Assembly (NCBI RefSeq): GCF_003002915.1
Contig: NZ_PVTG01000009.1
Span: forward strand, 1 to 64,000
Direction of reading: 5' to 3'
DNA: 64,000 bases
Source of the DNA: Geodermatophilus tzadiensis
Lineage (GTDB): Bacteria; Actinomycetota; Actinomycetes; Mycobacteriales; Geodermatophilaceae
Made by a program: the position numbers and the translations under genes
The notes under the pieces: generated by a model
The model's database searches: none
What the model saw: only the letters and a program-made list of their open reading frames with translations
Told to the model about the DNA's origin: nothing
In this document: positions 1,498 through 20,848 of the stretch, piece by piece
Numbering within the stretch: position 1 is the stretch's first letter
How the letters are laid out: each line of letters starts with the position of its first letter

Positions 1498-1529
1498 ACT
1501 GTGGGCTGCGCTCGTCACGGCGGCGTCAC
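1498..1529 (-). promoter_or_regulatory. GTGACG direct-repeat activator site, array 1
   Basis: Reading the minus strand, GTGACG occurs at 1529-1524 and again 11 bp later at 1518-1513. A weak -10 (CACAGT, 1503-1498) begins after a 9-nt gap and keeps A at position 2 and T at position 6. It points toward the matrixin-like gene starting at 1443. The layout matches SARP/OmpR-type activator sites. Confidence 0.6.
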
Positions 1530-1561
1530 CGGATCGGTGTCCGCCGCGGTCCGACGACCTG

Positions 1562-1604
1562 GTGACGGCGCAGTGACGCCCGTGTGACGCACGCTCGGGA
1601 CGCT
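1562..1604 (+). promoter_or_regulatory. GTGACG direct-repeat activator site, array 2
   Basis: Three perfect GTGACG copies start at 1562, 1573 and 1584, exactly 11 bp apart. A weak -10 (GACGCT, 1599-1604) starts after a 9-nt gap with A2 and T6 kept. It points toward the metalloprotease at 1679 and mirrors array 1 across the divergent promoter region. Confidence 0.65.
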
Positions 1605-1678
1605 GGGTCGGCCGCGCCGGGACGCCGAGCATCCGTCGGCGCCGCACGCCGCGAGCCCGGAGGAAGAGGAGCCGACCT

Positions 1679-3496
1679 GTGGCACAGGACGAGAACCGCA
1701 GCGACGGTGCCCGCGAGGCCGATCACGTCGAGCGCGCCGAGGACGTCCCGGCGGCGACGGTGGGCGCGGGGGAGGAGGCCGGCCTGGCGGGCCAGGTCCG
1801 GTCGGCGGACCTGGTGGCCGACGTCAACCTGGCGCAGGGCGTGACCTACACCCCCGGGGAGCTGAGGGTGCTCCGGACCGGCTACGTCTTCCGGGTCAAC
1901 GACGTGATCCGGGGAGAGGTGCCTGGCGAGTACGTCACCGTCAACGACACCGGAGGCGTCCGTCCCGACGGCTCCACCGTCTCCACGGAGCGCTCCTTTC
2001 GGCTCGTCCCGGGCGAGCGGTACGTGGTGTTCGCCGACCGGGTCGGAGGCGAGCTGTGGCTCCGGGAGGTCCTGCAGGTCCACGACGACGGGGCGGTCGT
2101 GGCGGACGCGTCGGGCAGGGTGCTGGTGGGGTTCCAGGAGGGGGTTCCGCTCGCGGAGGCCGAACCCACCTTCGAGGCGCTGCGGTACGTGCGACCGGTG
2201 GCCCGGGCCTCCGCGCCGATGGAAGGCCCTCCGGACGAGGCGTCGGAGCCGCTGCCCGACCAGCAGGGAGGGGCTGCCCTCGAGGCCGGCCGGCACGCCC
2301 CGGTCGACCTCGGGGCGGTGGTCGACTACCTGCGCGCCGCTCAGCGCCAGGGCTCGGCCCCACCGGACGTCCTCCCCGGGCAGGGAGGGGGGAGCTCCCC
2401 GTCCGCGGCAGGACCACCGGTACGGGAGCCGCCGCACAACATCGAGGGCCACAGCCAGGAGTCGGAGCCGGGCCCTGCGGGTGCCGGTACCGCCGAGGCG
2501 GTGCTCTCGGGCAACTACGTCACCGCGTTCCAGAGCCACTTCCACTTCCTGCCGAACGACGACAACTGGGCGTGGAGCAACCACTGCCGGGGGAGCTGGA
2601 ACGCGCTCGTCGACAACCGCCTCGGCCTGTTCGCATACAAGATCACCACGTCGGACGGCCAGCCCATCCGCGACCGGCTGCCGGTGGCCGGGAACGGCCA
2701 GAACAACGTGGGAGTGTTGTCGAACGCCCAGATGACCGCCGGCGGCTACGACACCTGGGACGTGCTGTCCGCCAACGGCGTCTGCTACACCTGGACCAGC
2801 GGCAACCGCGTCACCGAGACCGACATCCTCGTCAACCCGGCCATCGCCGGGGACGAGGCGCAGTTCCGGAAGACGCTGACCCACGAGTACGGGCATGCCC
2901 TGACGCTCGGCCACGAGTCCGCCCGGATGGCGCTGCTGTACCCGGGGACCTTCCGCCAGCCCCCCAACCACACCTCGCTCTGGTACTCGAGGGCGGACGA
3001 CCACCACGGCGTGCGCAGCATGCTCGACTGGGTCAACGCGAACGTCGCCGAGGGAACGTGGTCCGTCGCCCGGTTCACCGACATGGCCACGTGGTCGCAG
3101 GCCCACGCGGCCCCAGGCACGACCGGGAACCTGGTGATGACGCGCCTCGTGCCCGAGACGGTCGCCCGCGGGGGCACCGCCGCCGTCCAGTTCGTGCACG
3201 TCGAGAACCGCGGCAACGTGCCGGCCCAGAACGTGCGGCTCACGTTCTACCTCTCGCCGAACGAGGTCGTGTCCGCCGGTGACCACGAGCTCGCGTCCTT
3301 CACCTGGAACACGTTCACGACCTGGTGGAGCGGATCGCTGACCGTCCGGATCCCCACCTCGGTGCCGGCGGGGCAGTACTTCTTCGGCTGGATCGTCACG
3401 ACCGACACCGCGGAACGGTCGTCGTCCAACAACCAGGCGCTCCTCCTGCGCGATCACACGTCCGGGTTCGCGAAGGTCCGCGTCACCGTCACCTGA
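1679..3496 (+). CDS. Metzincin-like protease with CARDB-like C-terminal domain
   Basis: A 605-residue protein. Residues about 45-185 form a beta-rich region of unknown type, followed by a low-complexity Pro/Gly/Ala linker to about 265. The peptidase part has HEYGHALTLGH from His402; the three zinc histidines and the Glu are present, but the usual Gly before the third His is Thr. SMLDW may be the Met-turn. Residues about 480-600 resemble a CARDB adhesion-type beta-sandwich. The GTG start has a GGAGGAAGAGGAG leader. No signal peptide is seen. It follows a three-copy GTGACG array and probably forms an operon with the protease-nuclease gene 111 bp downstream. Confidence 0.7.
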   Translation: MAQDENRSDGAREADHVERAEDVPAATVGAGEEAGLAGQVRSADLVADVNLAQGVTYTPGELRVLRTGYVFRVNDVIRGEVPGEYVTVNDTGGVRPDGSTVSTERSFRLVPGERYVVFADRVGGELWLREVLQVHDDGAVVADASGRVLVGFQEGVPLAEAEPTFEALRYVRPVARASAPMEGPPDEASEPLPDQQGGAALEAGRHAPVDLGAVVDYLRAAQRQGSAPPDVLPGQGGGSSPSAAGPPVREPPHNIEGHSQESEPGPAGAGTAEAVLSGNYVTAFQSHFHFLPNDDNWAWSNHCRGSWNALVDNRLGLFAYKITTSDGQPIRDRLPVAGNGQNNVGVLSNAQMTAGGYDTWDVLSANGVCYTWTSGNRVTETDILVNPAIAGDEAQFRKTLTHEYGHALTLGHESARMALLYPGTFRQPPNHTSLWYSRADDHHGVRSMLDWVNANVAEGTWSVARFTDMATWSQAHAAPGTTGNLVMTRLVPETVARGGTAAVQFVHVENRGNVPAQNVRLTFYLSPNEVVSAGDHELASFTWNTFTTWWSGSLTVRIPTSVPAGQYFFGWIVTTDTAERSSSNNQALLLRDHTSGFAKVRVTVT

Positions 3497-3607
3497 CCGC
3501 GGCCCGACGCCGGCCGAACACTCGTCCAGCGGCGGACCCGCGCCGGGACGGCGAGGAGCAACGACCCGTCGGCAGGGGTTGCCGACGGCGGGACGCAGGG
3601 AGGGGCC

Positions 3608-5494
3608 ATGCCCACCGATGCAGACAGCTCCGGGCGCGTCGCGACGACGGACCGCACGAGGATGACCACGGGCGAGTACGAGCGGCTGCTCGCCGCGCTG
3701 CGGCGGTTCATCCGCACCGAGGGCGAGAGGTACCTCGCCGATCCCAACATCACCTCCATCGGCATCGGGTACAAGGTCACCGACGGCAGGGAGACCCCAG
3801 AGCTCTCGGTCCAGTTCACCGTCGGCGAGAAGCTCGCCGAGCCCGAGTCGCTCGCCGCGCTGGGTACGTCGGCGGTGCCCGAGTCGATCGTGATCGACGG
3901 TGTGGCGGTCCCGACCGACGTGCTGGAGCGCCGCTACGCGCCGGCGTTCCGCCTGGTGGCCGAGCCGCCCACCGTCGCGCGGAAGGTCCGGCTCGACCCG
4001 GTCGTGCCGGGCATCAGCGTGGGGCACCCGTCCATCACCGCCGGCACGATCGGTGGCGTCGTGTACGACCGGCGGGACGGCACGCCGTACGTGCTGAGCA
4101 ACTGGCACGTGCTGCACGGGCCGGACGGCTCGGTCGGTGACGACGTGGTGCAGCCCGGTCCGCGCGACGACAACCGCCTCGCCGCCAACCGGCTGGGCCG
4201 GCTGGTCCGCTCGTACCTGGGGATCGCGGGGGACTGCGCCGTCGCGACGATCGAGGACCGCCGCTTCGACGCCGTCCACCTGGGGCTGGGCGTAGTACCG
4301 GACCGGCTCGGAGAGCCGGAGCTGGGCGACGCGGTGGTCAAGTCCGGCCGCACGACCGAGGTGACGCGCGGGATCGTGCGACGGGTCGACGCGATCGTGC
4401 AGCTGGACTATGGCGGGTCCGTGGGGCTCAAGAACATCGGCTGCTTCGAGATCGGCCCGGACCCGGTGCACCCGGCCGCCCAGGGCGAGATCAGCCGGGG
4501 CGGTGACTCCGGGGCGATGTGGCTGTTCACCGACGCCGGGCAGCCGACGACCGTGGTGGCCGGTCTGCACTTCGGCGGCGAGGCCGGGCTGGACCCGGAC
4601 GAGCACGCGCTGGCCTGCCTGCCCGCGTCGGTGTTCGAGAAGCTGGAGATCACGCTGCGCCCGCCGTCGCCCGAGGACGTCATGGTGCCCCACGGCTACG
4701 ACCCCGGTTTCCTCGGCGTTAGCGTCCCGGCGCCCGAGCCCGGTGCCGCCATCCGCGAGGACGTGGCGTCCACGGTCGACGGCGACACCGTCGTCGAGCA
4801 CACGCACTTCTCGCTGCAGATGAGCGCCTCCCGGCGGTTCGCGTTCTGGGTGGGTTGGAACATCGACGGCGGCAGCCTGAAGGCGCTCAGCCGCAAGGGG
4901 ATGAAGTTCCTCAAGGACCCCCAGATCGCCGACGACCTCCAGGTCGGGAACGAGCTGTACGCCGGCAACGACCTCGACCGGGGACACATCGCGCGGCGGG
5001 CCGACCTGGTCTGGGGCAGCCTGCCCGTCGCCGAACGGGCCAACCGCGACTCGTTCTTCTTCACCAACATCGCGCCGCAGATGGACGACTTCAACCAGAG
5101 CGCCCAGGACGGCGTGTGGGGGAAGCTTGAGGAGGCGGTCTTCGCCGACGTGGACGTGGAGGACCTGAAGGTCAGCGTGTTCGGCGGGCCGGTCTTCGCC
5201 GCCGACGACCGGGTCTACCGGGGGGTGCGGCTCCCGCGCGAGTACTGGAAGGTTCTGGCCTTCCACGAGGCCGGTGCCCTGAAGGCACGCGCCTTCCTGC
5301 TCACGCAGTCCCTCGACCAGCTCGAGGCGCTGGAGCTGGACGAGTTCCGCGTCTTCCAGGTGACGGTCGCCGAGATCGAGGCCCGCTGCGGGCTGCGGTT
5401 CCCGGACGTGTTGCAGGAGGCCCAGCCCCTCGCGCCGGCCGATCAGACGGGGGAGCGGGAGCCGCTGGCCACGCTCGCGGACATCGTCTGGTGA
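3608..5494 (+). CDS. Trypsin-like protease fused to DNA/RNA non-specific endonuclease
   Basis: A 628-residue two-enzyme fusion. The N-terminal half is a chymotrypsin-fold protease with a full triad: His167 in SNWHVLHG, Asp209 in GDCAVA and Ser301 in GGDSGAMW. The C-terminal half (about 410-610) is an EndoG/NUC1-type nuclease with the DRGH motif (general-base His460), TNIAPQ and the downstream N...W...E metal-site pattern. A GGGAGGGG site precedes the ATG. No signal peptide is visible, so both activities would be cytosolic and presumably latent. It lies 111 bp after the CARDB-like protease gene without a promoter repeat of its own. Proteolytic release of the nuclease is an attractive inference, not shown. 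Confidence 0.85.
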   Translation: MPTDADSSGRVATTDRTRMTTGEYERLLAALRRFIRTEGERYLADPNITSIGIGYKVTDGRETPELSVQFTVGEKLAEPESLAALGTSAVPESIVIDGVAVPTDVLERRYAPAFRLVAEPPTVARKVRLDPVVPGISVGHPSITAGTIGGVVYDRRDGTPYVLSNWHVLHGPDGSVGDDVVQPGPRDDNRLAANRLGRLVRSYLGIAGDCAVATIEDRRFDAVHLGLGVVPDRLGEPELGDAVVKSGRTTEVTRGIVRRVDAIVQLDYGGSVGLKNIGCFEIGPDPVHPAAQGEISRGGDSGAMWLFTDAGQPTTVVAGLHFGGEAGLDPDEHALACLPASVFEKLEITLRPPSPEDVMVPHGYDPGFLGVSVPAPEPGAAIREDVASTVDGDTVVEHTHFSLQMSASRRFAFWVGWNIDGGSLKALSRKGMKFLKDPQIADDLQVGNELYAGNDLDRGHIARRADLVWGSLPVAERANRDSFFFTNIAPQMDDFNQSAQDGVWGKLEEAVFADVDVEDLKVSVFGGPVFAADDRVYRGVRLPREYWKVLAFHEAGALKARAFLLTQSLDQLEALELDEFRVFQVTVAEIEARCGLRFPDVLQEAQPLAPADQTGEREPLATLADIVW

Positions 5495-5518
5495 ACCGTC
5501 GGGCCGTCATCGCCCTGG

Positions 5519-5827: not shown

Positions 5828-5857
5828 CCGGCCCGCCGTCGGATCAGGACGTGCGGA

Positions 5858-6823
5858 TCACGACGTGAGGACGACGTCCTCCTGCGGATCCCAGTCGACC
5901 ACGGTCGGGGTGCGCGGGACCGGCACCTCCGCCGCCTCGGTCGTCGTTCCCGCGACCCCCTGGTCGCGGAGGATCTTGGGGTAGATGGTCGCGGTGAAGG
6001 AGGCGTCGAGGGGGTTGATGTCCAGCCCCCCGCGGATGGGCTTGCCATCCTTCGTGATCGAGCCGGGAAGCTGGTAGCACATGATGGAGTCCTGGTCGGC
6101 CTCGGTCCCGATGATCTTCGTGGGGTCGAGCGGGGTGAGCACCTGCTGGTCCACCATCTCCTTGGGCCAGCCCTGGGTCCGCTTGAAGTACTCGTAGGCC
6201 TTCTCCGGGTCGATGCGGTTCACGAGCGCCTGGCGCATGTGCTCGTGCGGGAACCCCAGCGTGTGGCCGGCCTCGTGGCGGACGACCCGGCGGTACTCCT
6301 TCTCGTCGGTGCTCATCGTGAACCCCTGCAGGTTCATGGTCTGCCGGTTCGCCGGGATGAGCTTGATGTCGGTGCCGAGGTAGGACCAGTAGCCCCCGGG
6401 GCCTCGGGAGATGCGGACGTCGCCGGTCCCCGAGGTCTGGGTGAAGGACATGCCGCCGTACTTCGCCCAAGCGTTCAGGTGTTCGACGATGCGTGCCCGC
6501 AGGTCCGCCGCGGTGGCCTCCATGAAGCTCACCGTCAGGGTCTTGGGCACCGGCCCCCAGTACCTGCCCGTGTAGATCGTCAGCTGCAGGGGGTCGAGCA
6601 CGCCGTCGCCGAGGGCGAGCTCCTGCAGCGGCGCGTTGGTCGGGTTCTCCTTCGCCGCCACTTCCGCGGCCTTCGTCTGCAGCCGGTCGGGCAGGGCCAT
6701 GACACGGCAACCGGCGTCGGCGTCGAAAGCCCCGCCTCCGTCGGACGAAGCCTGGTCGCCGACCGCCTCGCCCGCGATGCGCGCGATGTCCCGCAACGCC
6801 TTCATGTAGCCGGTTTCGTCCAT
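5858..6823 (-). CDS. Astacin-like (M12A) zinc metalloprotease
   Basis: A 321-residue peptidase. HEAGHTLGFPH begins at His183 with all canonical metzincin residues, followed by EH as in many astacin-like bacterial enzymes. DSIMCYQLPGS gives the Met-turn with the Tyr ligand. The start at ATG 6823 has GAGGAG upstream; a longer open frame reaches 6952 but would run into the promoter array. The N-terminus (MDETGYMKALRDIARIAGE) is a soluble helix, not a signal peptide. It heads an operon with the small beta-rich gene. A three-copy GTGACG array lies about 120 bp upstream, divergent from the CYTH-like gene. Confidence 0.8.
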   Translation of the reverse strand: MDETGYMKALRDIARIAGEAVGDQASSDGGGAFDADAGCRVMALPDRLQTKAAEVAAKENPTNAPLQELALGDGVLDPLQLTIYTGRYWGPVPKTLTVSFMEATAADLRARIVEHLNAWAKYGGMSFTQTSGTGDVRISRGPGGYWSYLGTDIKLIPANRQTMNLQGFTMSTDEKEYRRVVRHEAGHTLGFPHEHMRQALVNRIDPEKAYEYFKRTQGWPKEMVDQQVLTPLDPTKIIGTEADQDSIMCYQLPGSITKDGKPIRGGLDINPLDASFTATIYPKILRDQGVAGTTTEAAEVPVPRTPTVVDWDPQEDVVLTS

Positions 6824-6928
6824 GTCAGTCTCCTCGCAGATCCGGTTCCCAGGTGACGCCGGGAGGCGGAGGGGGCACGCCGGAGGGACCGCGCACAACC
6901 GCCCCACCCACCTCGTCCCGACGGCGCC

Positions 6929-6971
6929 AGAGTTCGCGTCCCCCGTCACCACGGCGTCACCACTCCGTCAC
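6929..6971 (-). promoter_or_regulatory. GTGACG direct-repeat activator site, array 3
   Basis: On the minus strand GTGACG occurs three times (6971-6966, 6960-6955, 6949-6944), each 11 bp apart. A weak -10 (AACTCT, 6934-6929) starts after 9 nt and keeps A2 and T6. It faces the M12-like protease gene starting at 6823. Confidence 0.65.
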
Positions 6972-6992: not shown

Positions 6993-7036
6993 GTGACGAA
7001 GCCGTGACGACGTCGTGACGAGGTGCCCACGACCCT
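6993..7036 (+). promoter_or_regulatory. GTGACG direct-repeat activator site, array 4
   Basis: Three perfect GTGACG copies start at 6993, 7004 and 7015. A weak -10 (GACCCT, 7031-7036) starts after 10 nt with A2 and T6 kept. It faces the CYTH-like gene at 7085 and is a mirror image of array 3. Confidence 0.65.
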
Positions 7037-7084: not shown

Positions 7085-7861
7085 ATGCGCTTCGACGGAG
7101 TCGAGATCAAGGTGACCCTCGGCCGGGACCTGACCGGTCAGGCGGTCGAGGAGCTCCAGCTCCCGGCGGAGGACCCCTGGCAGATCTGGTTCTGGGAGGA
7201 CGTCACCCCGGGCGACGGCCCGGGGACGCCACTGCTGGATCGCGGCGTGATCCTGAGGGCTCGCGACAAGGCCCGTGGCGACGACGACGCGACCATCAAG
7301 CTCCGCCCCTGCCGGCGCTCCCAGCTGACCGATCGGTGGCTGGCCACCACGAAGGGCAAGACCGGCGGCGAGGAGTGGGAGCTGAAGCTGGAGGCCGATT
7401 GGTCGGGTGAGCGGAGGGTGCTCGCGGCCTCGTACAGCTACGACCGGCCGGGCGGCCTCGTGCGGGAGGCCGGTCAGGGGAACCGGCCGGTCCAGGACCT
7501 CTTCACCGCCGACCAGTTGCTCTTCCTGCAGGACTGCTCGGGCACCGCCATCAACCTGGCGACCCTGACCGCGCTCCCGCCCGTGACGGCGACCCGGTGG
7601 AAGGACGTCCCGGCGGCCCCTCACGGGCTCGATCCGCGGGCCGAGCGGTGGACCGTCGGCGACCTGGACTTCCTCGAGCTCTCGGTGGTCGCCGACCTGG
7701 GGCAGGCCTCCAGGCGGCAGGCCGAGCTGACCGCGTTCCTGTGGTCCCGCGGCCTCGCGATCGGTGCGCAGCAGCAGAACAAGACCCGTCAGGTGCTCGA
7801 GCACCTCATGGCACGTGCCGTCGAACCCACGTCGACCGGCCGGCCGGTCGAGCACCGGTGA
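7085..7861 (+). CDS. CYTH-like (triphosphate tunnel fold) protein
   Basis: A 258-residue protein whose pattern fits the CYTH/triphosphate-tunnel fold. It has an early EIKVTL strand, an ILRARDK strand, a TIKLRPCRR strand of alternating basic residues, an ELKLEADW acidic strand and a late FLELSVVADLG strand followed by a helix. Family members bind or hydrolyse triphosphates or make cyclic nucleotides. The usual N-terminal ExExK is only partly kept (EIK), so activity is uncertain. The ATG follows GAGGGTGAG. It is controlled by a GTGACG array and followed after 14 bp by a small gene, probably co-transcribed. In a protease/NTPase setting a nucleotide-signal role is possible but inferred. Confidence 0.5.
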   Translation: MRFDGVEIKVTLGRDLTGQAVEELQLPAEDPWQIWFWEDVTPGDGPGTPLLDRGVILRARDKARGDDDATIKLRPCRRSQLTDRWLATTKGKTGGEEWELKLEADWSGERRVLAASYSYDRPGGLVREAGQGNRPVQDLFTADQLLFLQDCSGTAINLATLTALPPVTATRWKDVPAAPHGLDPRAERWTVGDLDFLELSVVADLGQASRRQAELTAFLWSRGLAIGAQQQNKTRQVLEHLMARAVEPTSTGRPVEHR

Positions 7862-7875
7862 ACCGAGGAGGCCCG

Positions 7876-8371: not shown

Positions 8372-8404
8372 GTGATGCGACCGTGACGCGGCATCCGCCA
8401 TCCT
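8372..8404 (+). promoter_or_regulatory. GTGACG direct-repeat activator site, array 5
   Basis: GTGATG (8372) and GTGACG (8383) lie 11 bp apart. A weak -10 (CATCCT, 8399-8404) starts after 10 nt with A2 and T6 kept. It lies 66 bp before the small gene at 8454. One repeat carries a single mismatch. Confidence 0.55.
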
Positions 8405-8453
8405 CGCCTCCTCGGCCGACCCAGCGATGTCCCGTACACAAAGGAGGCCCTCG

Positions 8454-8840
8454 ATGTCGGAGTTGAACCTGCCACGAGCAGCGGACGAGGAAACGCCGGC
8501 TGCCAACGTGGCGGCGGCGAGCCGTGAGGACGACGACGCGCGCGTCATGTACGCGGTGGTCGACGCGAACGGCACGCTCGCACGTGGGCGCAGAGCCGTG
8601 TCGGCTGCACGACTCGGGACGGGCACCTACGAGGTGGTCTTCCGCAGGGACGTGCGGAGGAGCGCGTACGTCGCGACCATAGGGCTGTCCGGCGCGGCGG
8701 GCGCGTCACTCCCCGGCGAGATCACCGTCGTGGGGCGTGCCGGCAACGACCGCGGCGTCTTCGTGACGACGCACAGCAGCGGAGGCGCCGCCGCGGACCT
8801 CGGTTTCCACCTCGCCGTCCTCGGCGCGGACGACGACTGA
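8454..8840 (+). CDS. Small beta-rich protein, function unknown
   Basis: A 128-residue protein. After an Ala/Glu-rich N-terminal 30 residues comes a beta-rich part containing MYAVVDANGTLARGRRAV, GTGTYEVVF and SAYVATIG. This resembles a small module seen in many uncharacterised bacterial proteins and surface or phage-tail-like proteins (from memory, not searched). AAGGAGG lies upstream of the chosen ATG; the longer frame from 8427 lacks such a site. It has its own GTGACG-type promoter, so it may be a further member of the regulon. No catalytic residues are evident. Confidence 0.6.
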   Translation: MSELNLPRAADEETPAANVAAASREDDDARVMYAVVDANGTLARGRRAVSAARLGTGTYEVVFRRDVRRSAYVATIGLSGAAGASLPGEITVVGRAGNDRGVFVTTHSSGGAAADLGFHLAVLGADDD

Positions 8841-12201: not shown

Positions 12202-13089
12202 CTAAGGCCTGTCCTGCGGATCTTCGCGGAGCCAGAGGACGACGGCGGCGAGGACGAGCAGCGCCCGGTAGTAGGCGGCTCGTTTGGCGTAGCGGGTGGC
12301 CAGGGCGCGGAACTGCTTGAGTCGGCGAAGCAGCGCTCGATGACGTTGCGCCCGGCATAGACCTGCTGGTCGAAGGCTGGTGGACGGCCGCCGGCCGAGC
12401 CTTTGGCCCGGCGGCGGGCGAGCTGGTCGATCCGCTCCGGGCAGGTGAACCGGACGTGCCGAGCACGCAGCGCCGCGCGGGTGGAGGGATGGGAGTAGGC
12501 CCGGTCGGCGATCACCCGCTCCGGTCGGCGGCGCGGGCCGCCGGGACCGCGACGAGCCACCGTCACCTGCGCCAGCAGCGGCAGCAGCTGCGGATTGTCG
12601 CCGGCCTGCCCGGCGGTGAGCAGCACGGCGATTGGCAGGCCGCGCCCGTCGACGGCCAGGTGCAGCTTGGTGGTCAGTCCGCCGCGGGAACGCCCGAGTG
12701 CTTCGCCATCGATGGCGAGGACCTCGACCGAGGCGCTGCAGCCCCCTTTTTCCGCGCTCCGGCGGCGTGCTGATGAGCGCGCACGGCGCTGGAGTCGACG
12801 CTGACGGTCCACTGCACCGCGCCGACCGCGTCGTCCTTGGTTACCACCTCGGTGAGGATCCGGTCCCAGGTGCCGTCGGCGGTCCACTTGCGCAGCCGCT
12901 CGTGCGTGGTCTTCCTCGGCCCGTAGCGCTCGGGCAGATCCCGCCACGGCACCCCGGTCGCGGCCTGCCCAGGATCGCGTTGATCACCTGCCGGTGATCC
13001 CGCCACCGCCCGCCCCGGCGCCCCGTGGCAGGCAGCAGCGGCTCGGTCCGCGCCCAGGCTGCATCGGTGAGCTCATGCCGGCCGACCAT
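12202..13089 (-). pseudogene. IS5-family transposase, frameshifted
   Basis: Successive frames on the minus strand together encode an IS5-type DDE transposase. They read MVGRHELTDAAWARTEPLLP, VPWRDLPERYGPRKTTHERL, VDSSAVRAHQHAAGARKKG, RSRGGLTTKLHLAVDGRG, VIADRAYSHPSTRAAL and AGRNVIERCFA. The switches between frames are several, more than one programmed -1 shift would explain, so it is probably inactive. The stop codon TAG is formed by the last base of the element and the flanking TA. The protein would have DDE residues near VDSS, ADRAY and the C-terminal helix. Confidence 0.75.
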
Positions 13090-13134
13090 GAGTCAGCCTG
13101 GCCCACATCGACGAAAGATCGCCAGGACAGGCCC
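12205..13134 (-). mobile_element. IS5-family insertion sequence, 930 bp
   Basis: Terminal inverted repeats are visible. The left end starts AGGCCTGTCCTG at 12205. The right end, read on the minus strand, starts GGGCCTGTCCTG at 13134. Both continue into GATCTT after a two-base swap. TA flanks each end (12203-12204 and 13135-13136), consistent with the TA duplication made by IS427-type IS5 elements. It carries the frameshifted transposase. Confidence 0.8.
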
Positions 13135-13185
13135 TAGATCTACCTGGCCAGGACGTTGGTGACGGCCGGTCGGGCTTGAACGAAG

Positions 13186-13243
13186 GAGAACCTCCGAGTG
13201 GGGTGTGGCTTGTCGAAGGCCCAGTCCCTGCTCGGAGGTTCTC
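13186..13243 (+). promoter_or_regulatory. RNA stem that can hide the transposase ribosome site
   Basis: GAGAACCTCCGAG (13186-13198) and CTCGGAGGTTCTC (13231-13243) form a perfect 13-bp stem with a 32-nt loop. The right arm contains the GGAGG ribosome site and ends at the base before the GTG start at 13244. A transcript reading in from outside would fold and block translation, whereas one starting inside the loop would not. Confidence 0.6.
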
Positions 13244-14220
13244 GTGTCCCACGCTAATGCCCGCACGACCGTCCATGGCCGGAAGCTGATCGTCGAGCGA
13301 TTCGTCGAGCGATGGCAGCGCGGCTGGCGGCCGGCGCACATCGCCGCGGCGATGGGCATCTCCCGCAAGTGTGTGCGGACCTGGACACTCGCTACGCCGC
13401 CGAGGGCGAAGCCGGGTTGGCCGACCGGTCCAGCCGCCCGCACAGCAGCCCGCTACGCACCCCCGTGCAGGTGGAAGACCAGATCGTCGAGCTCCGCACA
13501 CGGGAGCGCCGGGGCCCGGCGTGGATCGGCGCCGAACTCGACGTGCCGGCGCGCACCGTCTCCCGCGTGCTGACCCGCCGCGGGTTGCCCCGGCTGGCCG
13601 CCTTGGACCCGATGACCGGGCAGATCATCCGGGCCTCGAAGACCACCGCGACCCGCTACGAGCGGGCTGTTCCCGGCGAGCTGGTGCACATGGACGTCAA
13701 GAAGTTGGCGCGCATTCCCGACAGCGGCGGCTGGCGCGCACACGGCCGCGCCGCCCGCGAACAGACCCGGAACCGCAGGGTCAAGGTCGGCTATGACTAC
13801 GTGCACTCACTGGTCGATGACCACTCCCGGCTGGCCTACTCCGAGATCCTCACCCACGAGAAGGGCCCCACCTGCGCGTCTTTCCTCGGCCGCGCCGCGG
13901 CCTACTTCGCCGCCCACGGCATGCCCCGCATCGAGCGGGTGATGACCGACAACGCCTGGGCCTACCAGCACTCGCTCAAGGCCGTGTGTGCCCAGCTGGG
14001 AGCCCGACAGAAGTTCATCCGCCCGCACTGCCCCTGGCAGAACGGCAAGGTCGAACGCCTCAACCGCACCCTGGCCACCGAGTGGGCCTATCGGCAGGTC
14101 TTCACCAGCAACGACCAGCGCGCCGCCGCACTCGCGCCCTGGCTCGAGCACTACAACACTCGACGCCGCCACAGCGCACTCGGCGGCCACCCACCCATCA
14201 GCCGCCTGGCACCGACCTAA
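13244..14220 (+). pseudogene. IS481-family transposase with one frameshift
   Basis: The first frame reads VSHANARTTVHGRKLIVERF through GISRKCVRTW (helix-turn-helix). The second continues TRYAAEGEAGLADRSSRPHS and the integrase core: HMDVKKLARIP, VDDHSRLAYSE, VMTDNAWAYQ and GKVERLNRTLATEW, ending SALGGHPPISRLAPT. One missing base near 13382, right after the VRTW codons, separates them. All DDE positions are present in the second frame. It is therefore an otherwise complete transposase broken by a single indel, or less likely a programmed shift or sequencing error. Confidence 0.8.
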
Positions 14221-14372: not shown

Positions 14373-14404
14373 GTGACGCGCCGGTGACGATGGTCGAGCA
14401 GGCT
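14373..14404 (+). promoter_or_regulatory. GTGACG direct-repeat activator site, array 6
   Basis: Two perfect GTGACG copies start at 14373 and 14384. A -10-like CAGGCT (14399-14404) follows after 9 nt with A2 and T6 kept. The array lies about 55 bp before the DUF3616-type gene at 14445. Confidence 0.6.
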
Positions 14405-14444: not shown

Positions 14445-15477
14445 ATGACCGCTGGACGTCAGGTCGAGTTGCGATTCGGGGCGGGGGCAGGATCCGACGA
14501 GGCCCTCAAGGACCTATCGGCGGTCTGCCACGACGGGGACTTGTTGTGGATCGCCGGGGACGAGGCGCCCCGGCTGGAGCGACTCCGCATGACGGAGGAC
14601 GGGTCGTACGACGAGCACCGGTCGTTCCTCCTAGGGGACTTGGTGGACCTGCCCCAGGGTCCGGAGGAGGAAGTCGACGTCGAGGGGCTGGACCGCGCTG
14701 GGGACCACCTGTGGCTGGTGGGTTCGCACAGCCGGACGCGCAAGCGGATCAAGAAGACCGACGACGACGCCGAGGTGGCTAGGAACCTACGAAACCGTGC
14801 GGTCCCATCCAAACCGGCACGTCGTCATCCGGTTCCGGATCGACGACGGCACGCCGGAGCGGGGCGCGCTGCTCGGGAGCGTCGGGGGACTGGCCGACGC
14901 GCTGTCCACCGACGAGCACCTCGCCCCGTTCCTTTCCGTCCCGAGCAAGGACAACGGCCTCGACGTCGAGGGCCTCGCCGCCGTCGACGACGGCACCGTG
15001 CTCGTCGGGCTGCGGGGACCGGTGCTGCGCGGCTGGGCCGTCGTCCTGGAGCTGAGGCTCAACGAGGTCCCCGGGCGACCGGACCGATTGGCCCTCCGCG
15101 ACTGCGACAAGTACTTCCTGCGGCTGGACGGCCTCGGGGTGCGGGACCTGTGCCGGGACGGCGACGACCTCCTGGTGCTCGCCGGCCCGACGATGGACCT
15201 TGACGGACCGACCCGGCTCTACTGCTGGCACGGCGCAGTCCGGAAGCGGAAGTCGCCGGTGGTCCGCAATGAGCAGCTCACCCGCCTGGACGTGCCGCTG
15301 CCGCTGCGCCCGGACAGGGTGGAACCGGAGGAGGGACGCGACAAGGCCGAGGGCGTCACCCCGCTCCCGGATGCCGCCGAGCCCGCGGTGCTGGTCGTCT
15401 ACGACACTCCAGCCGATGCCCGCCGGCGGAACGATGGCCGGACCGTCCTCGCCGACGTTGTGCCGCTGCCCCGCTGA
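14445..15477 (+). pseudogene. DUF3616-family protein, broken by one frameshift
   Basis: The first frame (from ATG 14445) gives LSAVCHDGDLLWIAGDEAPR, VDLPQGPEEEVDVEGLDRAG and LWLVGSHSRTRKR. The second (from about 14785) gives TVRSHPNRHVVIRFRI, then GGLADALSTDEHLAPF, DVEGLAAVDDGTVLVGLRGP and ends at 15477. Together they match the DUF3616 pattern, a beta-propeller-like family of unknown function. The break is a single-base problem near 14785, so this may be a recent mutation or a sequence error. It has its own GTGACG array and no signal peptide. Confidence 0.7.
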
Positions 15478-16128
15478 TCGGGTCGGCCGACCGGGGCGGG
15501 GCGGTCGGACAGCACCCCGCTGCGCCCGCCGCCGCGTGGTCCTCTTCAGCAGCTCCACTACACGTCCGGAGGTCCTCCCACGACAAGATCCCTCAGTCCG
15601 ATCCTGTGGTCGCACACACTCGACCAATGTCTCCGGTCAGTGCTCCTAGACCCGCGCGCCGCCTGTCCGGTCGAACGACGGCGGGCCGACAGCCGGTAGT
15701 TGTCGCGACCCGGGCGCGCGGCCACCGACGTTGCGGCGGCGCCCGGCTGCACTTCGGGACGCGGATCGGCGTCGGACGGCAGGTCCTCGACCTCGCCGAC
15801 GGCGGCCCGCGGCGCGTGGCCTGGCCGGGTGCCGCGTCGGGCCTCGCACACCGGTGTGCCTGTCAAGCCGTTGTTCACAGGTGCCTCGGCGGAGGTCGGT
15901 TCAGGACACCTCCGCGGGACGTCACCCGCCGCGGTTCGCGGAGTGTTTGAGCTGAGCAAGCTTGGTCGGTCGTTGGCGGCTCGGTGACACAGCGGTGACG
16001 GCGGGCCGAGATGATGCTCTCCTGCTGCATCCCGAGGGGCTCCGGTGCCAGCCCAGGCTGGCCGGCGCCGACCAATTAGGACAGGAAACGGTGCCCTGGA
16101 ACCCTCCTACTGATCGGGGGGACCGCTG
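15478..16128. other. 650-bp gap upstream of the STAND gene
   Basis: No convincing gene is present. A minus-strand and a plus-strand frame run through part of it but lack family features and good ribosome sites. The recognisable signal is the GTGACG-type array near 15984. About 110 nt of leader would separate that promoter from the GTG start at 16129. Confidence 0.45.
15984..16015 (+). promoter_or_regulatory. GTGACG direct-repeat activator site, array 7
   Basis: GTGACA (15984) and GTGACG (15995) lie 11 bp apart. TTGGCG sits one further period upstream (15973) as a weak third copy. A -10-like GATGAT (16010-16015) follows after 9 nt, keeping A2 and T6. It faces the STAND NTPase gene. Confidence 0.55.
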
Positions 16129-19100
16129 GTGATTGGGACCACGCCGACGCCGAGAGCCCGTGTAGTCACTGGCGAGCCGGAAGGAGGTCCCATTCGCGCC
16201 GCGTGGGCGCGTGCTCGTCGGCCGTTGATCGCGACCTTCTGGCGGCTACGCCGACGGTGGCTTCTCGACCGTGGTGCCGTGCACGTGCGACGTTGGGGTT
16301 CGTCGCCACGCGCAAGAGTGGGCATGGTCCTCAGCGCGCTGCTCACCCTCATCCTTCTAACCTGGGTGCTCCGCGGGATCATCGTCGTCACCTTCTTCAA
16401 CAAGAAGGACGTGGCGTGGTCGTGGCGCGACTTCAATCCGGATCTGGGGTGCCAGGACGTGCCCACCTCCTGTGCCGCGATCACCGGCGTCCTGATGCCT
16501 GTTCTCTTCCTGGCGTGGACGACGGTGCTCTTCCTGTTCTGGCGGCAGCGGCGCGTGCTGCGCTACTACGCACACAGGGCGAAGACGGAGCCGTACCGCC
16601 TCGTGCAGACCGCGGGGAGCCTCACCGACGAAGTCATCGGACGCGACCAGCTCTGTGACGCTCTGATCAACAACCTGCGCGATGCCAAGGCTCGCCGCCC
16701 GCACGTCGTCGTCGGATCGGTCGGTGTCGGCAAAACTGCGGTGCTGGTCCACCTCACCGCGCGTCTCGCCGCCAAAGGTGCGGTACCCGTGCCCATCCGC
16801 ATGCGGGACGTCCAAGATGAGGGACACCTCGACTTCTGCGAGCTCGCCCGCGTCCGTTTCACCCAGATCGTGCAGCCCGTCGTCCGGTCCTCTGCCGAGC
16901 AGGACCGGATCTGGCGGTGGTTACGGCAGCGGGCCGGCCGCGTTGTCGTGGTCGCGGACGGTCTGGAGGAAGCCCTCGCCGACGAGACGATGGCCGGACA
17001 GCGCGACAACCTAATCCGCACCGCGATTCGCAACGCAGACGACGAGGGACTGCCACTCGTCATCGCTTCTCGGCCGCACGACCCGCTGCGGGCCATGCAG
17101 GCGGCCATTACCGATCTGGAACCGCTGAGCGAGGAAGCGGCAATGCGTTACATCGCCGCTGGCGGCAGCTGGCGCTCCGAGGCGGTGCTGCTCGACCGCG
17201 TGGTGGAAGCGGCCAAGATGGGCGAGTCACCCCTCTACATGCGGTTGGCGCGGGACCTCCACCGTCAGGATCTCCTCGAGCCGTTGTGGCTTGAGGTCGG
17301 TGGGCTGGACGTCGTGATGCTGGACCGCTGGAGCTTCCGGCAAGATCTCCTGCAGGCCTGGTTGGACGCGCTGGTCGACGGCAAGATCCATCCCGAGCTG
17401 CCCATCGACCAGCGCACGCGGAAGGCGGTGATCGAGTATCTCTCGGCCTTGGCGTGCATCGGGTTGAGGTCGGACAGTGCCACAGTGGCGCTCCGCGACC
17501 TAGACCCGTTCCTGACGGCCGGATCAGCGGCTCAGCCGGACACTGAGGCGCGGCCCGATGACTCGGGCCGCGCGTGGAATCGCAGCGTCGCTGCCTACGT
17601 CGACGACCGTATCAAGCGCCTGCAGCAGGCCACAAACGACCGGCTGGACGTCGTCGGGGCTGGGGTCGTACAAAGCCCGTGGATGGACGTCCGCCTCGCC
17701 GCGACCTGGGGCACCCGGATGGGACTCGTCCGCGAGTACGGCCGCAGCGCACACGGCCCGGCCGGGGGAGGCACCGTTGCCAACGCCACCGTGCATTTCC
17801 AGCACAGCATCATTCAGGCGTTTCTGGGGTCACGGGCCTTACGCGGCGTCCTCGGTGAGGTGCGGTCGCCCGTCCCCTCTGGTGGCGGCACTGTCTCGGA
17901 ATCCTTGGCCGAGCGGAGGAGGATGGTTAGCGCGGCCCTCGACCGCTGTGGCCGCGAGCTGCTCATCGCCTTCGTGCTGAACTCGCGCTCATTGGACGGG
18001 CGGTGCAACTGCGTAGGTCCGGACGACGTTCCTACGGACGGGTGTCCGACGCGTTTGGTGAGGGACGCGCTGCAGAACAAGACACTCCGTCTGCTGGAAG
18101 AGGCCACCGCATTGCAGGATGTCCTGAAGCGCCAGGCGCGCCAAGAGCGTGAGGAACGACGGAGGATCGGCGAAGCGGCAGGGGAGGTCTTCCGGCACGG
18201 TCTACGACTCTGGGCCCTGGAGGTCTTCGGCGCATGCGTGGAGATCGCCAGCGTGGAAGCGGGGCCGGGCCTGGCGGATCTAGTGCATCTAGCCGAGAGC
18301 CATTGGGAGCAGTTCGGAGCGGGCGAGGATCCCGTCCGGCTTCGCGAGGAAAAGCTGACCGTAGTCGAGCAGTGCGGAGCCGCCGCCAGCCGAATCGGCT
18401 CGGATAATGATGGGCGGGGGACCTACCGGAAGCTCTTCGAGATCGGCTGTGCTGAGCCGGATTACCGCGTGCGACTGGCTATCGCGCAACGTATAGGAAC
18501 CGGCGGAGAACGGGCATTCAGCGCGGTCTACGACGTCATTCATCAGCACGAGATCGTCGTCAAGGGGGATCGGCCGAAGCGACCTCCGGCGGAAGAACTC
18601 ACGACAACCCCCGGGCAGCTCGACCCGCGGATGTACCGCGCCTGGTGCAGTCGTCACCAACGCGCGATGCAGCGGCGCGAGCGGGAGTTGGCTGACACGG
18701 AGGCGGAAGAGGAGCGGAGGCGTTGGTACGCCGAGACGATGCGGGCGTGGGTGCTACCGATGCTCGTGGACTCGGCGAAGTTGACTCGACACAGCGGCAG
18801 CCCATGGGACGACTTAGAGAACTGGATCGTCGATGCCACGAAGGCGAACGAGCCGCGCAACGGAAGGCTGCTGTCGCCAGGCGAGCGGTGCGACCTCGGT
18901 GTGGCGCTGGCCCAGGGCTTCAAGTACGCAGCCAACCGGCGGCCCGGCCCACACTCGAACCAGGAGAGCCGGGAGTTCTTGGTCAAGCAGGCGCAGGAGT
19001 TGCTCAAGCGCAGCTCCTACTGGTACACCCGGCTGACCCTGGTCCAGGCGCTAACTCTCTGGGCTCTCCCGGATGATGTGAGTGCACCTCAGGCCATCAG

Positions 19101-19830
19101 GGGTCACGGCGCGGACCCGGCGGGCCAGGTGAGGGAGTGGCTCAAGCTGGAAAGGGACCGCCGTGAGCACCCACTCGTGCAGGAGGCGGGCAAGCTGGCC
19201 GTACGCGCCTTACAGACCCGCCGTCCCGAACGCTTCCTCTGGGTGGACGACGGCGCCGTGGCCTCCCAGCTCGGCACGGAGGCTGGCTTCTCGGCACGGC
19301 CGAGGTTCCACAACCTCTGGATTCACCCCTCGACCGGATGGACCTCCCTGGACTTCAAGGCCCAGCAGCTCTTGGCCGACGCTCTCCTGCTACTGGTTCT
19401 CGGTGAGCGGGGCTACCGGCCGAAGGACCTCTTCCGGTTTCTCGAGCGGGTGACTTCGGACGAGTCGCGACTGCCGTCCTGTCTGACGCGGGACCGAACG
19501 AGACTGGACCCCGTGCGGGCGGTGGAGAGCGCGGTGACGCCGGGGGAGTTCTGCCGCGACGATTGCGGTCTGCGGATGTGTCCCTACCCGGCCAAGGCCG
19601 AGAAGTACATCCGCCTAGAATTCAACGAGCTGTTCTGCCTGCACCAGCGGGAGCTGCTCCGGACCTGGCAGCCGCGGTCGTGGCTGAACTTCCGCTTTCG
19701 TCGTAAGGCTACCTGGCAGCGACGCGTGCCGGTCGCCGGGATGCGCCGGTTTTGGGACCAGATGGGCGAACGGGCGCGGGACGTCGACCCGGACCACGTG
19801 CGCGTCTCGGGACGCAATGCCCATCGCTGA
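16129..19830 (+). CDS. Membrane-anchored STAND/NACHT-like NTPase
   Basis: A 1233-residue protein. Two hydrophobic helices at about 64-90 and 118-138 anchor it. A P-loop NTPase follows: Walker A GSVGVGKTAVL (Lys202), Walker B RVVVVADGLEE (Asp277) and a sensor-like VIASRP, typical of NACHT/STAND switches. The large C-terminal part (about 480-1233) is helical with charged stretches and may be a sensing superstructure. No separate nuclease or TIR effector domain is recognised. GTG start with GGGGGGA upstream. A GTGACG-type array precedes it. Membrane STAND proteins often act in phage defence or cell-death signalling; that role is inferred. Confidence 0.75.
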   Translation: MIGTTPTPRARVVTGEPEGGPIRAAWARARRPLIATFWRLRRRWLLDRGAVHVRRWGSSPRARVGMVLSALLTLILLTWVLRGIIVVTFFNKKDVAWSWRDFNPDLGCQDVPTSCAAITGVLMPVLFLAWTTVLFLFWRQRRVLRYYAHRAKTEPYRLVQTAGSLTDEVIGRDQLCDALINNLRDAKARRPHVVVGSVGVGKTAVLVHLTARLAAKGAVPVPIRMRDVQDEGHLDFCELARVRFTQIVQPVVRSSAEQDRIWRWLRQRAGRVVVVADGLEEALADETMAGQRDNLIRTAIRNADDEGLPLVIASRPHDPLRAMQAAITDLEPLSEEAAMRYIAAGGSWRSEAVLLDRVVEAAKMGESPLYMRLARDLHRQDLLEPLWLEVGGLDVVMLDRWSFRQDLLQAWLDALVDGKIHPELPIDQRTRKAVIEYLSALACIGLRSDSATVALRDLDPFLTAGSAAQPDTEARPDDSGRAWNRSVAAYVDDRIKRLQQATNDRLDVVGAGVVQSPWMDVRLAATWGTRMGLVREYGRSAHGPAGGGTVANATVHFQHSIIQAFLGSRALRGVLGEVRSPVPSGGGTVSESLAERRRMVSAALDRCGRELLIAFVLNSRSLDGRCNCVGPDDVPTDGCPTRLVRDALQNKTLRLLEEATALQDVLKRQARQEREERRRIGEAAGEVFRHGLRLWALEVFGACVEIASVEAGPGLADLVHLAESHWEQFGAGEDPVRLREEKLTVVEQCGAAASRIGSDNDGRGTYRKLFEIGCAEPDYRVRLAIAQRIGTGGERAFSAVYDVIHQHEIVVKGDRPKRPPAEELTTTPGQLDPRMYRAWCSRHQRAMQRRERELADTEAEEERRRWYAETMRAWVLPMLVDSAKLTRHSGSPWDDLENWIVDATKANEPRNGRLLSPGERCDLGVALAQGFKYAANRRPGPHSNQESREFLVKQAQELLKRSSYWYTRLTLVQALTLWALPDDVSAPQAIRGHGADPAGQVREWLKLERDRREHPLVQEAGKLAVRALQTRRPERFLWVDDGAVASQLGTEAGFSARPRFHNLWIHPSTGWTSLDFKAQQLLADALLLLVLGERGYRPKDLFRFLERVTSDESRLPSCLTRDRTRLDPVRAVESAVTPGEFCRDDCGLRMCPYPAKAEKYIRLEFNELFCLHQRELLRTWQPRSWLNFRFRRKATWQRRVPVAGMRRFWDQMGERARDVDPDHVRVSGRNAHR

Positions 19831-19870
19831 GGCGTGATCTACGCCGCGGCTTCGAGATCCGGGCGTGCCC

Positions 19871-20826
19871 TAGGGAGCGTCTGACGGATCACGGGAGCCA
19901 GGTCAGTAGCGCGGCGAGGTTGAGAGCGCCGGCGTAGTTGCGGGCGTGCTTGTCGTAGCGGGGTGGCCAGTCCGCGCCACTGTTTGACCTGGCAGAAGCC
20001 GCGTTCGACGACGTTGCGGCGGGCGTAGCGGCCGGTGTCGAAGCCGACCGGGCGGCCGCCGGCGGACCCCTGGCGGCGCCGGTTGGCGGCCTGGTCGCGG
20101 GGCTCGGGAATAGTGTGGGCGATGCCCCGGCGGCGCAGCAGCGCCTGATTGGCCCGACTGCTGTAGCCCTTGTCCGCGACCAGGTAGTCCGGGCGGGTCC
20201 GCGGCCGTCCCGGACCGGGCGGCCAGCAGCTCGGTGAACATGGTGGTGTCGTTGACGTTGCCCGCGGTCAGCAGCACCACCAGGACCCGTCCGCGGCCAT
20301 CGGTGAGCGCGTGCACCTTGGTGGTCAGCCCGCCGCGGGAGCGGCCGATGGCGTGATCGGCGGGCTCGGCGAGTACGACTTCGGCCAGCGAATCAACCTC
20401 CTCCGGGGCGCCGGCCACGCTCCTGATGGCCTACCCGCGGGCGGTGGCGGCGTTGCCGCCGAGGCGCCAGGCAGCCGCGCCGTGCTGGTGCACCCGCACC
20501 AGCGTGGAGTCCGCCGCCACCAGCCAGTCCAGCTCACCGGCGGCGTCGGCGTCGGCTTGGGCCCAGGCCAGCAACTTCGCCCAGGTGCCGTCGCTGCTCC
20601 AGTGGGTCAGCCGCTCGTAGGCGGTCTGCCAGGGCCGAAGGACTCGGACAGTTCCCGCCACGGCGAGCCGGTGCGGTACTTCCACGCGATCGCCTCGATC
20701 ACCTGCCGGTGATCGCGCCACCGCCCGCCCCGGCGTCCGGTCGAGGAGGGCAGCAGCGGCTCCATCCACGCCCACGCCTCATCAGAGACCACGCATCGAT
20801 GCTGTCGCATCGCCTCGTGACGTTCC
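19871..20826 (-). mobile_element. Second IS5-family insertion sequence, decayed
   Basis: The stretch is filled by a frameshifted IS5-type transposase distinct from the first element. Ends are uncertain. GGAGCGTCTG near 19874 and, on the minus strand, GGAACGTCAC ending near 20826 are a possible poor inverted repeat (7 of 10). It separates the STAND gene from the membrane-protein gene and may have been inserted between once-adjacent partners. Confidence 0.6.
19889..20810 (-). pseudogene. IS5-family transposase, multiple frameshifts
   Basis: Minus-strand frames in turn read MRQHRCVVSDEAWAWMEPLL, GGRWRDHRQVIEAIAWKYRT, TAYERLTHWSSDGTWAKLLA, LVAADSTLVRVHQHGAA and IGRSRGGLTTKVHALTDGRG, then in another frame end in LNLAALLTWLP before a TGA at 19891-19889. 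Several frame changes are needed, so it is inactive. The motifs (DST region, SRGGLTTK) are those of IS5 family transposases. Confidence 0.75.
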
Positions 20827-20848
20827 GGTGACGGAGGCACCGGATCAT
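20817..20848 (+). promoter_or_regulatory. GTGACG direct-repeat activator site, array 8
   Basis: GTGACG copies start at 20817 and 20828, and a -10-like GATCAT (20843-20848) follows after 9 nt with A2 and T6 kept. It lies about 80 bp before the membrane-protein gene at 20927. Caution: it abuts the IS5-type element, whose exact end is unknown, so the first copy could be part of the IS terminus. Confidence 0.5.

What the first reader, a model, noticed from the sequence alone, without database searches (positions are those of the whole stretch)
1498..20848. An unreported-looking regulon: eight promoters with GTGACG direct repeats at an exact 11-bp period
Seen directly: arrays at 1513-1529(-), 1562-1589(+), 6944-6971(-), 6993-7020(+), 8372-8388(+), 14373-14389(+), 15984-16000(+), 20817-20833(+). 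They have two or three hexamers each, spaced exactly 11 bp, all upstream of and pointing to a gene. After the last hexamer, A and T sit at positions 2 and 6 of a weak -10 hexamer beginning 9 nt later (six arrays) or 10 nt later (two). If bases are 36% G, 36% C, 14% A, 14% T, one GTGACG is expected about every 3 kb per strand, so eight phased pairs are not chance. Established: SARP-type (ActII-ORF4, DnrI) and OmpR/PhoB-type activators use 11-bp-phased direct repeats placed about one turn before the -10. Inference: one activator co-controls proteases, a CYTH-like protein, a DUF3616 protein, a STAND NTPase and membrane proteins. I saw no such arrays from 27 to 64 kb.
Basis: partly seen in the sequence, partly recalled or inferred. 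Interest (0 to 1): 0.92.

Follow-up and report, generated by a model that had tools for sequence, protein, structure and literature searches.

The report
Small-SARP regulon of leaderless hydrolases
A soil actinobacterium (Geodermatophilus) carries the same two- or three-repeat switch in front of many scattered genes for proteases, nucleases, oxidases and immune-like proteins, most probably flipped by a small activator whose relatives also sit beside syringe-like injection machines.

Summary
All eight arrays are present, each followed after 9 or 10 nt by NANNNT. The genome has 29 exact GTGACG-N5-GTGACG pairs against 0 for the reversed control, forming 24 arrays. Of these, 23 have the -10, against 0 of 17 arrays from comparison genomes without a close activator copy and 2.9% by chance. 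A clade of small SARPs (winged helix plus BTAD; model resembles AfsR) lies beside arrays. In Geodermatophilaceae, 21 genomes with a close copy have a median of 20 pairs and 16 without have 2. GTGACG at 11 bp is enriched around these SARPs in other families too. Many targets are leaderless proteases, nucleases, lipases, oxidases and TIR/NACHT/SLATT proteins. In species with a contractile injection system (CIS), arrays also precede most CIS operons and the CIS-clade SARP, and some CIS-locus genes belong to the same families as scattered targets. The window's genome has no detectable CIS. Binding and expression are inferred, not shown. This is a new variant of SARP promoter logic with an unusual regulon.

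The parts
1513..1529 (-). array, 2 repeats
1498..1503 (-). -10 CACAGT, 9 nt after last repeat
655..1443 (-). target: leaderless metalloprotease-like protein (HELGH; M10/M12 below Pfam cut-offs)
1562..1589 (+). array, 3 repeats
1599..1604 (+). -10 GACGCT, 9 nt
1679..3496 (+). target: leaderless matrixin-like protein (HEYGH; PF00413 just over cut-off)
3608..5494 (+). Endonuclease_NS protein, next gene downstream, no array of its own; co-transcription is inferred
6944..6971 (-). array, 3 repeats
6929..6934 (-). -10 AACTCT, 9 nt
5858..6823 (-). target: leaderless astacin/matrixin-like protein (HEAGH; just under Pfam cut-offs)
6993..7020 (+). array, 3 repeats
7031..7036 (+). -10 GACCCT, 10 nt
7085..7861 (+). 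target: 258 aa, no Pfam/NCBIfam hit; a relative is array-driven in L138
8372..8388 (+). array, 2 repeats (first is GTGATG)
8399..8404 (+). -10 CATCCT, 10 nt
8454..8840 (+). target: 128 aa, unknown (ATG at 8427 possible)
14373..14389 (+). array, 2 repeats
14399..14404 (+). -10 CAGGCT, 9 nt
14445..15477 (+). target: DUF3616 gene, readable only in two overlapping frames (broken copy or assembly error)
15984..16000 (+). array, 2 repeats (first is GTGACA)
16010..16015 (+). -10 GATGAT, 9 nt
16129..19830 (+). target: NACHT/STAND NTPase (start 16129 or 16324)
20817..20833 (+). array, 2 repeats
20843..20848 (+). -10 GATCAT, 9 nt
20927..22288 (+). target: unknown family (one weak Pfam match under cut-off); relative 45% identical in the CIS locus of sister species G008, and array-driven in L089 and L104

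Best explanation
The arrays are operators of a small SARP activator. In this genome the close candidates are three genes on another contig, C4: a tandem pair (L033:11602-12354 and 12476-13264) and one at C4:252774-253460. Two SARP protomers bind side by side on GTGACG repeats 11 bp apart, overlapping the place of a missing -35, and recruit RNA polymerase to a weak NANNNT -10 that starts 9 or 10 nt downstream. Shown by computation: the array plus -10 anatomy, its genome-wide excess, its link with the SARP clade, and the target list. Inferred: binding, activation and timing. Function, inferred: the regulon is a stand-by arsenal in which leaderless hydrolases, oxidases and conflict proteins are prominent. 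In sister species the same operator also precedes contractile injection system (CIS) operons and the CIS-clade SARP, so the arsenal probably began as CIS machinery plus cargo or partner genes. In lineages with no detectable CIS, such as this one, it more likely works inside the cell or after lysis.
For: Anatomy: 29 pairs against 0 reversed control; logo of 69 arrays of the genus shows CGGTGACG units, a weak third upstream unit, and A and T of the -10. The -10 follows 23 of 24 exact arrays of this genome, 15 of 17 in CIS-bearing regions, 12 of 15 near SARPs of other families, 0 of 17 in comparison genomes; chance 2.9%. Regulator: 21 Geodermatophilaceae genomes with a close SARP (230 bits or more) have a median of 20 pairs (4-29), 16 without have 2 (0-6), p 2.6e-7 before phylogeny. 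Around the SARP, GTGACG at 11 bp: 71 seen, 0.71 expected in 42 loci of Geodermatophilaceae (one a MAG labelled Frankiales); 18 against 0.57 in 34 others. SARP model (pLDDT 92) resembles AfsR (E 3e-10, TM 0.72) and EmbR; the family profile matches AfsR at E 1e-13. Arrays precede the CIS operon in 7 of 8 sheath regions fetched from genomes with a close SARP, and lie upstream of 4 of 4 fetched CIS-clade SARP genes of Geodermatophilus. In Streptomyces and Yinghuangia, five array-driven genes are sheath genes 49-81 nt downstream (three Pfam-checked, all five). CIS-locus genes share families with scattered targets of other species; a haem peroxidase does so at 72% identity. None of 30 peptidase and nuclease targets examined reaches the hydrophobicity of a signal peptide at its called N-terminus.
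Against: No binding or expression data. 25 of 34 SARP loci outside Geodermatophilaceae show no sheath within 10 kb, some of them short contigs, and 23 of the 34 have no exact array. In G057 (another family) two arrays flank a divergent SARP, but neither has the 9/10-nt -10. This genome and the single-contig genomes G017, G023 and G024 lack gp25; G000 and G017 also lack the sheath, so CIS cannot be the whole story. G036 has a SARP but only 4 pairs, one of four with the -10. The G004 sheath region has no array. Only 7 of 108 SARP rows have an array within 420 bp upstream, so autoregulation is not general. With the -10 sought only after exact repeats the rate is lower, 49 of 64. The S8 control for leaderlessness is weak: 14 of 29 non-array S8 have a hydrophobic N-terminus against 0 of 7 array S8 (different window lengths). 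Called starts may be wrong. The 230-bit cut was set after seeing the scores; phylogeny was not corrected for.
Confidence: 0.82

Rival explanations
1. An OmpR-type response regulator (MtrA, PhoP or GlnR type) binds the arrays; these also use 11-bp direct repeats.
For: The family uses 11-bp-phased repeats (recalled). Seven of the 16 Trans_reg_C hits of this genome score over 75 bits and look OmpR-type.
Against: MtrA and PhoP are near-universal in actinobacteria (recalled), yet array number in one genus runs from 0 to 29 and follows the small SARP. Arrays cluster round the SARP genes. The 8-bp gap to the -10 is the SARP rule. No OmpR-family gene was itself tested for co-variation.
Confidence: 0.05
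2. One of the large BTAD regulators (about 1000 aa) is the activator and the small SARP is a neighbour.
For: This genome has 12 BTAD hits; 8 of the 9 that were listed lie in open frames of 964 aa or more. All BTAD hits together correlate with arrays (rho 0.55, 16 genomes).
Against: After a rough subtraction of the small SARPs the correlation falls to 0.40 (p 0.13, 16 genomes), against 0.85 for the small SARPs (23 genomes).
Confidence: 0.06
3. The SARP regulon is real, but it is a nutrition regulon of exoenzymes that are exported by an unknown route.
For: Many targets belong to degradative families usually secreted (recalled): S8, M4, M36, M14, nucleases, tyrosinase.
Against: No signal-peptide-like N-terminus in any of 30 peptidase and nuclease targets examined; TIR, NACHT, SLATT, caspase and TPR-S targets are not nutritional.
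Confidence: 0.12
4. The SARP regulon is a programmed-death or anti-invader arsenal acting inside the cell, with CIS as one optional member.
For: TIR-KAP, NACHT, SLATT, caspase, SIR2 and Tle1-like targets; leaderless hydrolases; arrays abundant in single-contig genomes with no gp25. A Streptomyces CIS is required for developmentally regulated cell death (PMC10020575, title and passages).
Against: PADLOC matched only 3 of 10 proteins tested (PifA-like KAP at 3e-12, TIR effector models at 1e-5 and 2e-6) and none of the five window proteins. CIS-locus genes share families with the targets, which suits cargo as well.
Confidence: 0.35
5. The arrays were spread as part of a mobile element or repeat.
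For: Several arrays lie in regions of low codon adaptation and near contig ends.
Against: Within 40 nt downstream, nothing but the -10 is conserved across 69 arrays.
Confidence: 0.02

Closest known systems
SARP promoters (AfsR on afsS; AfsR paper PMC10936776 and SARP review PMC10972967, passages of both)
   Same: 11-bp direct repeats overlapping the -35 place, 3' repeat 8 bp from a weak -10, small SARP fold.
   Different: Hexamer GTGACG instead of the AfsR repeat CGTT(T/C)ATCGNN (passage). Targets are scattered, often leaderless hydrolases, oxidases and conflict genes plus CIS, rather than an antibiotic cluster.
BTAD genes next to eCIS loci (PMC8213781)
   Same: That paper lists BTAD as a shell domain of eCIS loci and proposes that such neighbouring genes regulate them (passages).
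   Different: In the passages seen, no operator, no dispersed regulon, and no case without a CIS is described.
EmbR of Mycobacterium tuberculosis
   Same: Same SARP-like core fold (Foldseek E 4e-8).
   Different: The small SARPs have no third (FHA) domain; targets unrelated (EmbR biology recalled).
PafBC promoters
   Same: A motif close upstream of a -10 replaces the -35 (recalled).
   Different: Different motif (RecA-NDp element, recalled) and regulator family (WYL, abstract seen).

Membership tests
SARP (small) | BTAD domain | tested here: met
   PF03704 at 73.5 and 57.2 bits in the tandem pair, cut-off 22.1
SARP (small) | OmpR-type winged helix at the N-terminus | tested here: met
   AlphaFold2 model of a relative aligns with AfsR and EmbR over most of its length, TM 0.72-0.76 by query; PF00486 itself does not match at E 0.001
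SARP (small) | 11-bp direct repeats with the 3' repeat 8 bp from the -10 | tested here: met
   rule from PMC10936776
SARP (small) | binds DNA and recruits RNA polymerase | not testable with these tools
   needs EMSA or in vitro transcription
SARP (small) | activates an adjacent biosynthetic cluster | not tested
   no cluster prediction was run; the Pfam-annotated targets do not resemble one
CIS-linked regulator | SARP gene within 10 kb of a sheath gene | tested here: inconclusive
   9 of 34 loci outside Geodermatophilaceae, 0 of 42 in the main Geodermatophilaceae set; met for L229, L230 and L233
CIS in the window's own genome | sheath (PF04984) and gp25 (PF04965) | tested here: not met
   0 matches each in G000
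Known defence systems | PADLOC model match | tested here: inconclusive
   3 of 10 proteins matched (PifA/QatA-like KAP, two TIR models); none of the five window proteins did, the NACHT protein included

The most novel reading that the evidence does not exclude
GTGACG arrays mark the off-site cargo of contractile injection systems in actinobacteria: a SARP born inside CIS loci was duplicated in Geodermatophilaceae and now drives some twenty scattered, often leaderless, cargo-like genes in trans. In lineages that have no CIS the same arsenal was kept as a self-digestion or innate-immunity programme. The operator would then be a search key for undiscovered CIS effectors.
Probability: 0.3. Interest if true: 0.87.

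Novelty: new variant of a known kind. Interest (0 to 1): 0.72.

Why it matters
SARPs are known mainly as switches of antibiotic clusters. Here a small-SARP clade with its own recognition hexamer appears to command a genome-wide, rapidly turning-over set of genes rich in leaderless enzymes, and CIS operons where these exist. The operator with its -10 is specific enough to list regulon members from sequence alone. That makes two open questions directly testable: what switches on actinobacterial CIS, and which unlinked genes belong to the same programme.

Tried and rejected
OmpR-type regulators were considered and rejected as drivers by argument, because array number varies within one genus and follows the small SARP; no OmpR gene was tested for co-variation. 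Large BTAD regulators were tested as a control and correlate weakly. The simple idea 'this genome's targets are CIS cargo' was tested and failed in its strict form: no sheath or gp25 in G000. The S8 control for missing signal peptides was underpowered: only 30 of 44 S8 matches were held as loci and one of these 30 had an array. PADLOC did not place the targets in known defence systems. NCBIfam named 1 of 10 proteins. Paper searches for GTGACG or SARP with Geodermatophilus, CIS or eCIS listed no description of this operator (listings only, plus passages of six papers).

Dropped or unsure rows: the 17 comparison arrays with no -10 are all 4 of G010, all 6 of G016 (which holds a 128-bit SARP fragment), all 4 of G053, the single arrays of G048 and G038, and 1 of 4 of G057. 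G057 was later found to hold a divergent SARP (156 bits); its other three arrays were then fetched and also lack the -10, including the two that flank that SARP. The four G036 arrays were left out of the 17 because G036 has a SARP; one of the four has the -10. Arrays of the other SARP-less genomes (G011, G013, G014, G018, and family members) were not read. The second sheath of G039 and the gp25 locus of G005 were not fetched. Family labels of some targets come from BLAST clusters with a Pfam-labelled member, not from Pfam itself. One search had seven rows on the wrong strand; one search replaced it. Gene starts come from my own simple codon-model caller, which missed genes in low-GC islands (L030, L031).
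Full report
Observation. The window is C9:1-64000 of a 4.87-Mb genome in 36 contigs. The genome has 29 exact GTGACG-N5-GTGACG pairs against 0 for the pattern read backwards. In the 26 genomes of the genus searched there are 378 pairs against 9 control matches (sum). At 6 to 32 bp spacing this genome has 128 GTGACG pairs against 17 reversed; of the 100 listed, 25 lie at 11 bp and the other frequent spacings are multiples of three.

Promoter anatomy. Sixty-nine arrays from this genus (49 with two units, 20 with three, one mismatch allowed) give the unit CGGTGACGNNN, a weakened third unit upstream, no conserved -35, and a -10 reduced to A at position 2 (52%) and T at position 6 (62%) for the main spacing, with the 1-nt-shifted class also visible. 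With the -10 sought after the last complete or partial repeat, it is found in 23 of the 24 exact arrays of this genome, 15 of 17 arrays of CIS-bearing regions, 12 of 15 near SARPs of other families and 0 of 17 in comparison genomes; random positions give 2.9%. A stricter count gave 49 of 64 in the genus loci and 1 of 21 in comparison genomes. Three further arrays of G057, two of them flanking a divergent SARP, lack it. Published SARP sites have repeats 11 or 22 bp apart with the 3' repeat 8 bp from the -10 (PMC10936776, passages); taking GTGACGN as a heptamer the geometry here is the same. Of the 69 arrays, 62 have the next called gene in the same direction, some of them far away; 48 of 64 exact arrays are intergenic with a same-strand start within 250 bp. 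The misses include low-GC regions in which my caller found no gene.

Regulator. A BTAD search in 26 genomes showed, besides large proteins, short low-scoring ones lying close to arrays. In the window's genome two such genes form a tandem pair between arrays on contig C4, and a third lies at C4:252774-253460. Pfam finds only BTAD, but a profile of the family matches AfsR (E 1e-13), and an AlphaFold2 model of a relative (pLDDT 92) resembles AfsR in its promoter complex and EmbR. Across 37 Geodermatophilaceae genomes, 21 with a copy of 230 bits or more hold 4-29 pairs (median 20) and 16 without hold 0-6 (median 2); p = 2.6e-7, uncorrected for phylogeny, with the cut chosen after seeing the scores. 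Large BTAD proteins alone correlate weakly. A named scan, of which the best 80 of 518 matches were kept, gave Geodermatophilus, Blastococcus and Modestobacter, then Streptomyces, Micromonospora, Plantactinospora, Kribbella, Frankia and others; equal contig lengths place the window's genus as Geodermatophilus. Around the SARPs, GTGACG is the commonest 11-bp-phased hexamer apart from one poly-C run: 71 against 0.71 expected in 42 Geodermatophilaceae loci, one of them a MAG labelled Frankiales (found in 29), and 18 against 0.57 in 34 other loci (found in 11), with further peaks at 22 bp. By ratio the overlapping TGACGC stands above it in the other families.

Targets. In the window: three metalloprotease-like proteins with HExxH, a DUF3616 gene, a NACHT NTPase and unknown proteins. 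Elsewhere in this genome, as first or second gene after an array: two M14 carboxypeptidases, subtilase, M48 peptidase, exonuclease-endonuclease-phosphatase, Tle1-like phospholipase, DyP-type peroxidases with a small partner, FAD monooxygenase, TIR-Clp_N-KAP, AMIN-like with peptidoglycan-binding domain, glycogen-debranching-like enzyme. In relatives: thermolysin, fungalysin, M6, M8, M28, M43, trypsin, caspase, patatin, tyrosinase, animal haem peroxidase, GMC oxidoreductase, glyoxal oxidase with LGFP repeats, endonucleases, TIR, SLATT and TPR-S proteins; a good part of the scanned targets had no match. Of 113 well-scored targets (of 151 with a reading frame) 10 have a strongly hydrophobic N-terminus against 66 of 332 other called genes (p 0.006); none of the 30 peptidase and nuclease targets examined has one.

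Contractile injection systems. Outside Geodermatophilaceae, 9 of 34 SARP loci hold a sheath gene within 10 kb, and in five Streptomyces or Yinghuangia loci an array lies 49-81 nt before the sheath gene. In Geodermatophilus, sheath genes occur in some genomes only. Of eight fetched sheath regions from genomes with a close SARP, seven have an array ahead of the operon (G019, G006, G009, G007, G015 and two in G008) and one does not (G004). The SARP-less G018 region and four regions from other families have none. The SARPs of these CIS loci form a separate subclade, and 4 of 4 fetched Geodermatophilus members have an array 118-131 bp before the domain start; one of the four, in G006, is some 29 kb from its sheath. 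CIS-locus genes with arrays ahead or nearby include a haem peroxidase 72% identical to a scattered target of G001, a relative (45%) of the window's 20927-22288 protein, a phosphatase-nuclease, tyrosinases and a patatin-like protein. Yet this genome lacks sheath and gp25, as does the single-contig G017, and single-contig G023 and G024 lack gp25, although all four hold 22-29 pairs. So the regulon does not need a CIS.

Reading. The operator, its -10 and its regulator class are well supported. The purpose is less certain. A largely leaderless arsenal shared in part with CIS loci suggests cargo or partner genes; its persistence without a CIS suggests intracellular use such as self-digestion or defence. 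A Streptomyces CIS is required for developmentally regulated cell death (PMC10020575, title and passages), which fits either. BTAD genes beside eCIS loci have been listed as likely regulators (PMC8213781, passages), and a SARP gene was linked by genome neighbourhood to CIS genes in S. clavuligerus (PMC13102240, passages). My searches listed no paper describing this operator or a scattered regulon, within an open-access library only.

Noticed in passing
window 14445-15477: The DUF3616 gene is readable only in two overlapping frames (14445-14888 and 14797-15468), so the copy is broken or the assembly has an error there. It was described only.
   Followed up: partly
G000 contigs C9 start, C13 end, C14 start, C28 both ends: Many arrays of this genome lie close to contig ends, and downstream GC is 58-67% for 4 of the 5 arrays listed in L030 and L031: the regulon sits partly in islands that may break the assembly.
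   Followed up: no
L033:11602-12354 and 12476-13264; similar pairs in G001, G002, G003, G007, G008, G017, G019, G022: The SARP genes often occur as neighbouring diverged pairs, which would allow a heterodimer on the asymmetric direct repeat.
   Followed up: no
L279-L287 (G010, G016): All 10 arrays of two Geodermatophilus genomes without a full close SARP are intergenic by my gene calls, yet none has the -10: decayed sites or another regulator.
   Followed up: partly
L160, L179 and L181-L212: Around SARPs outside Geodermatophilaceae, GTGACG pairs also occur 8 times at a 9-bp period; unexplained.
   Followed up: no
L033:14658-16700: A fusion of an indoleamine-2,3-dioxygenase-like domain with a cytochrome-b5 domain follows the array-driven AMIN/PG-binding gene.
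   Followed up: no
L145:11025-13637: An array-driven fusion of LGFP repeats with a glyoxal/galactose-oxidase-like domain.
   Followed up: no
L101:9085-10974: An array-driven fusion of a weak HAD-like match with an M28 peptidase.
   Followed up: no
G057:C75:327-1165: In another family of the order a divergent SARP (C75:465-1100) is flanked by an array on each side; neither array has the 9/10-nt -10.
   Followed up: partly
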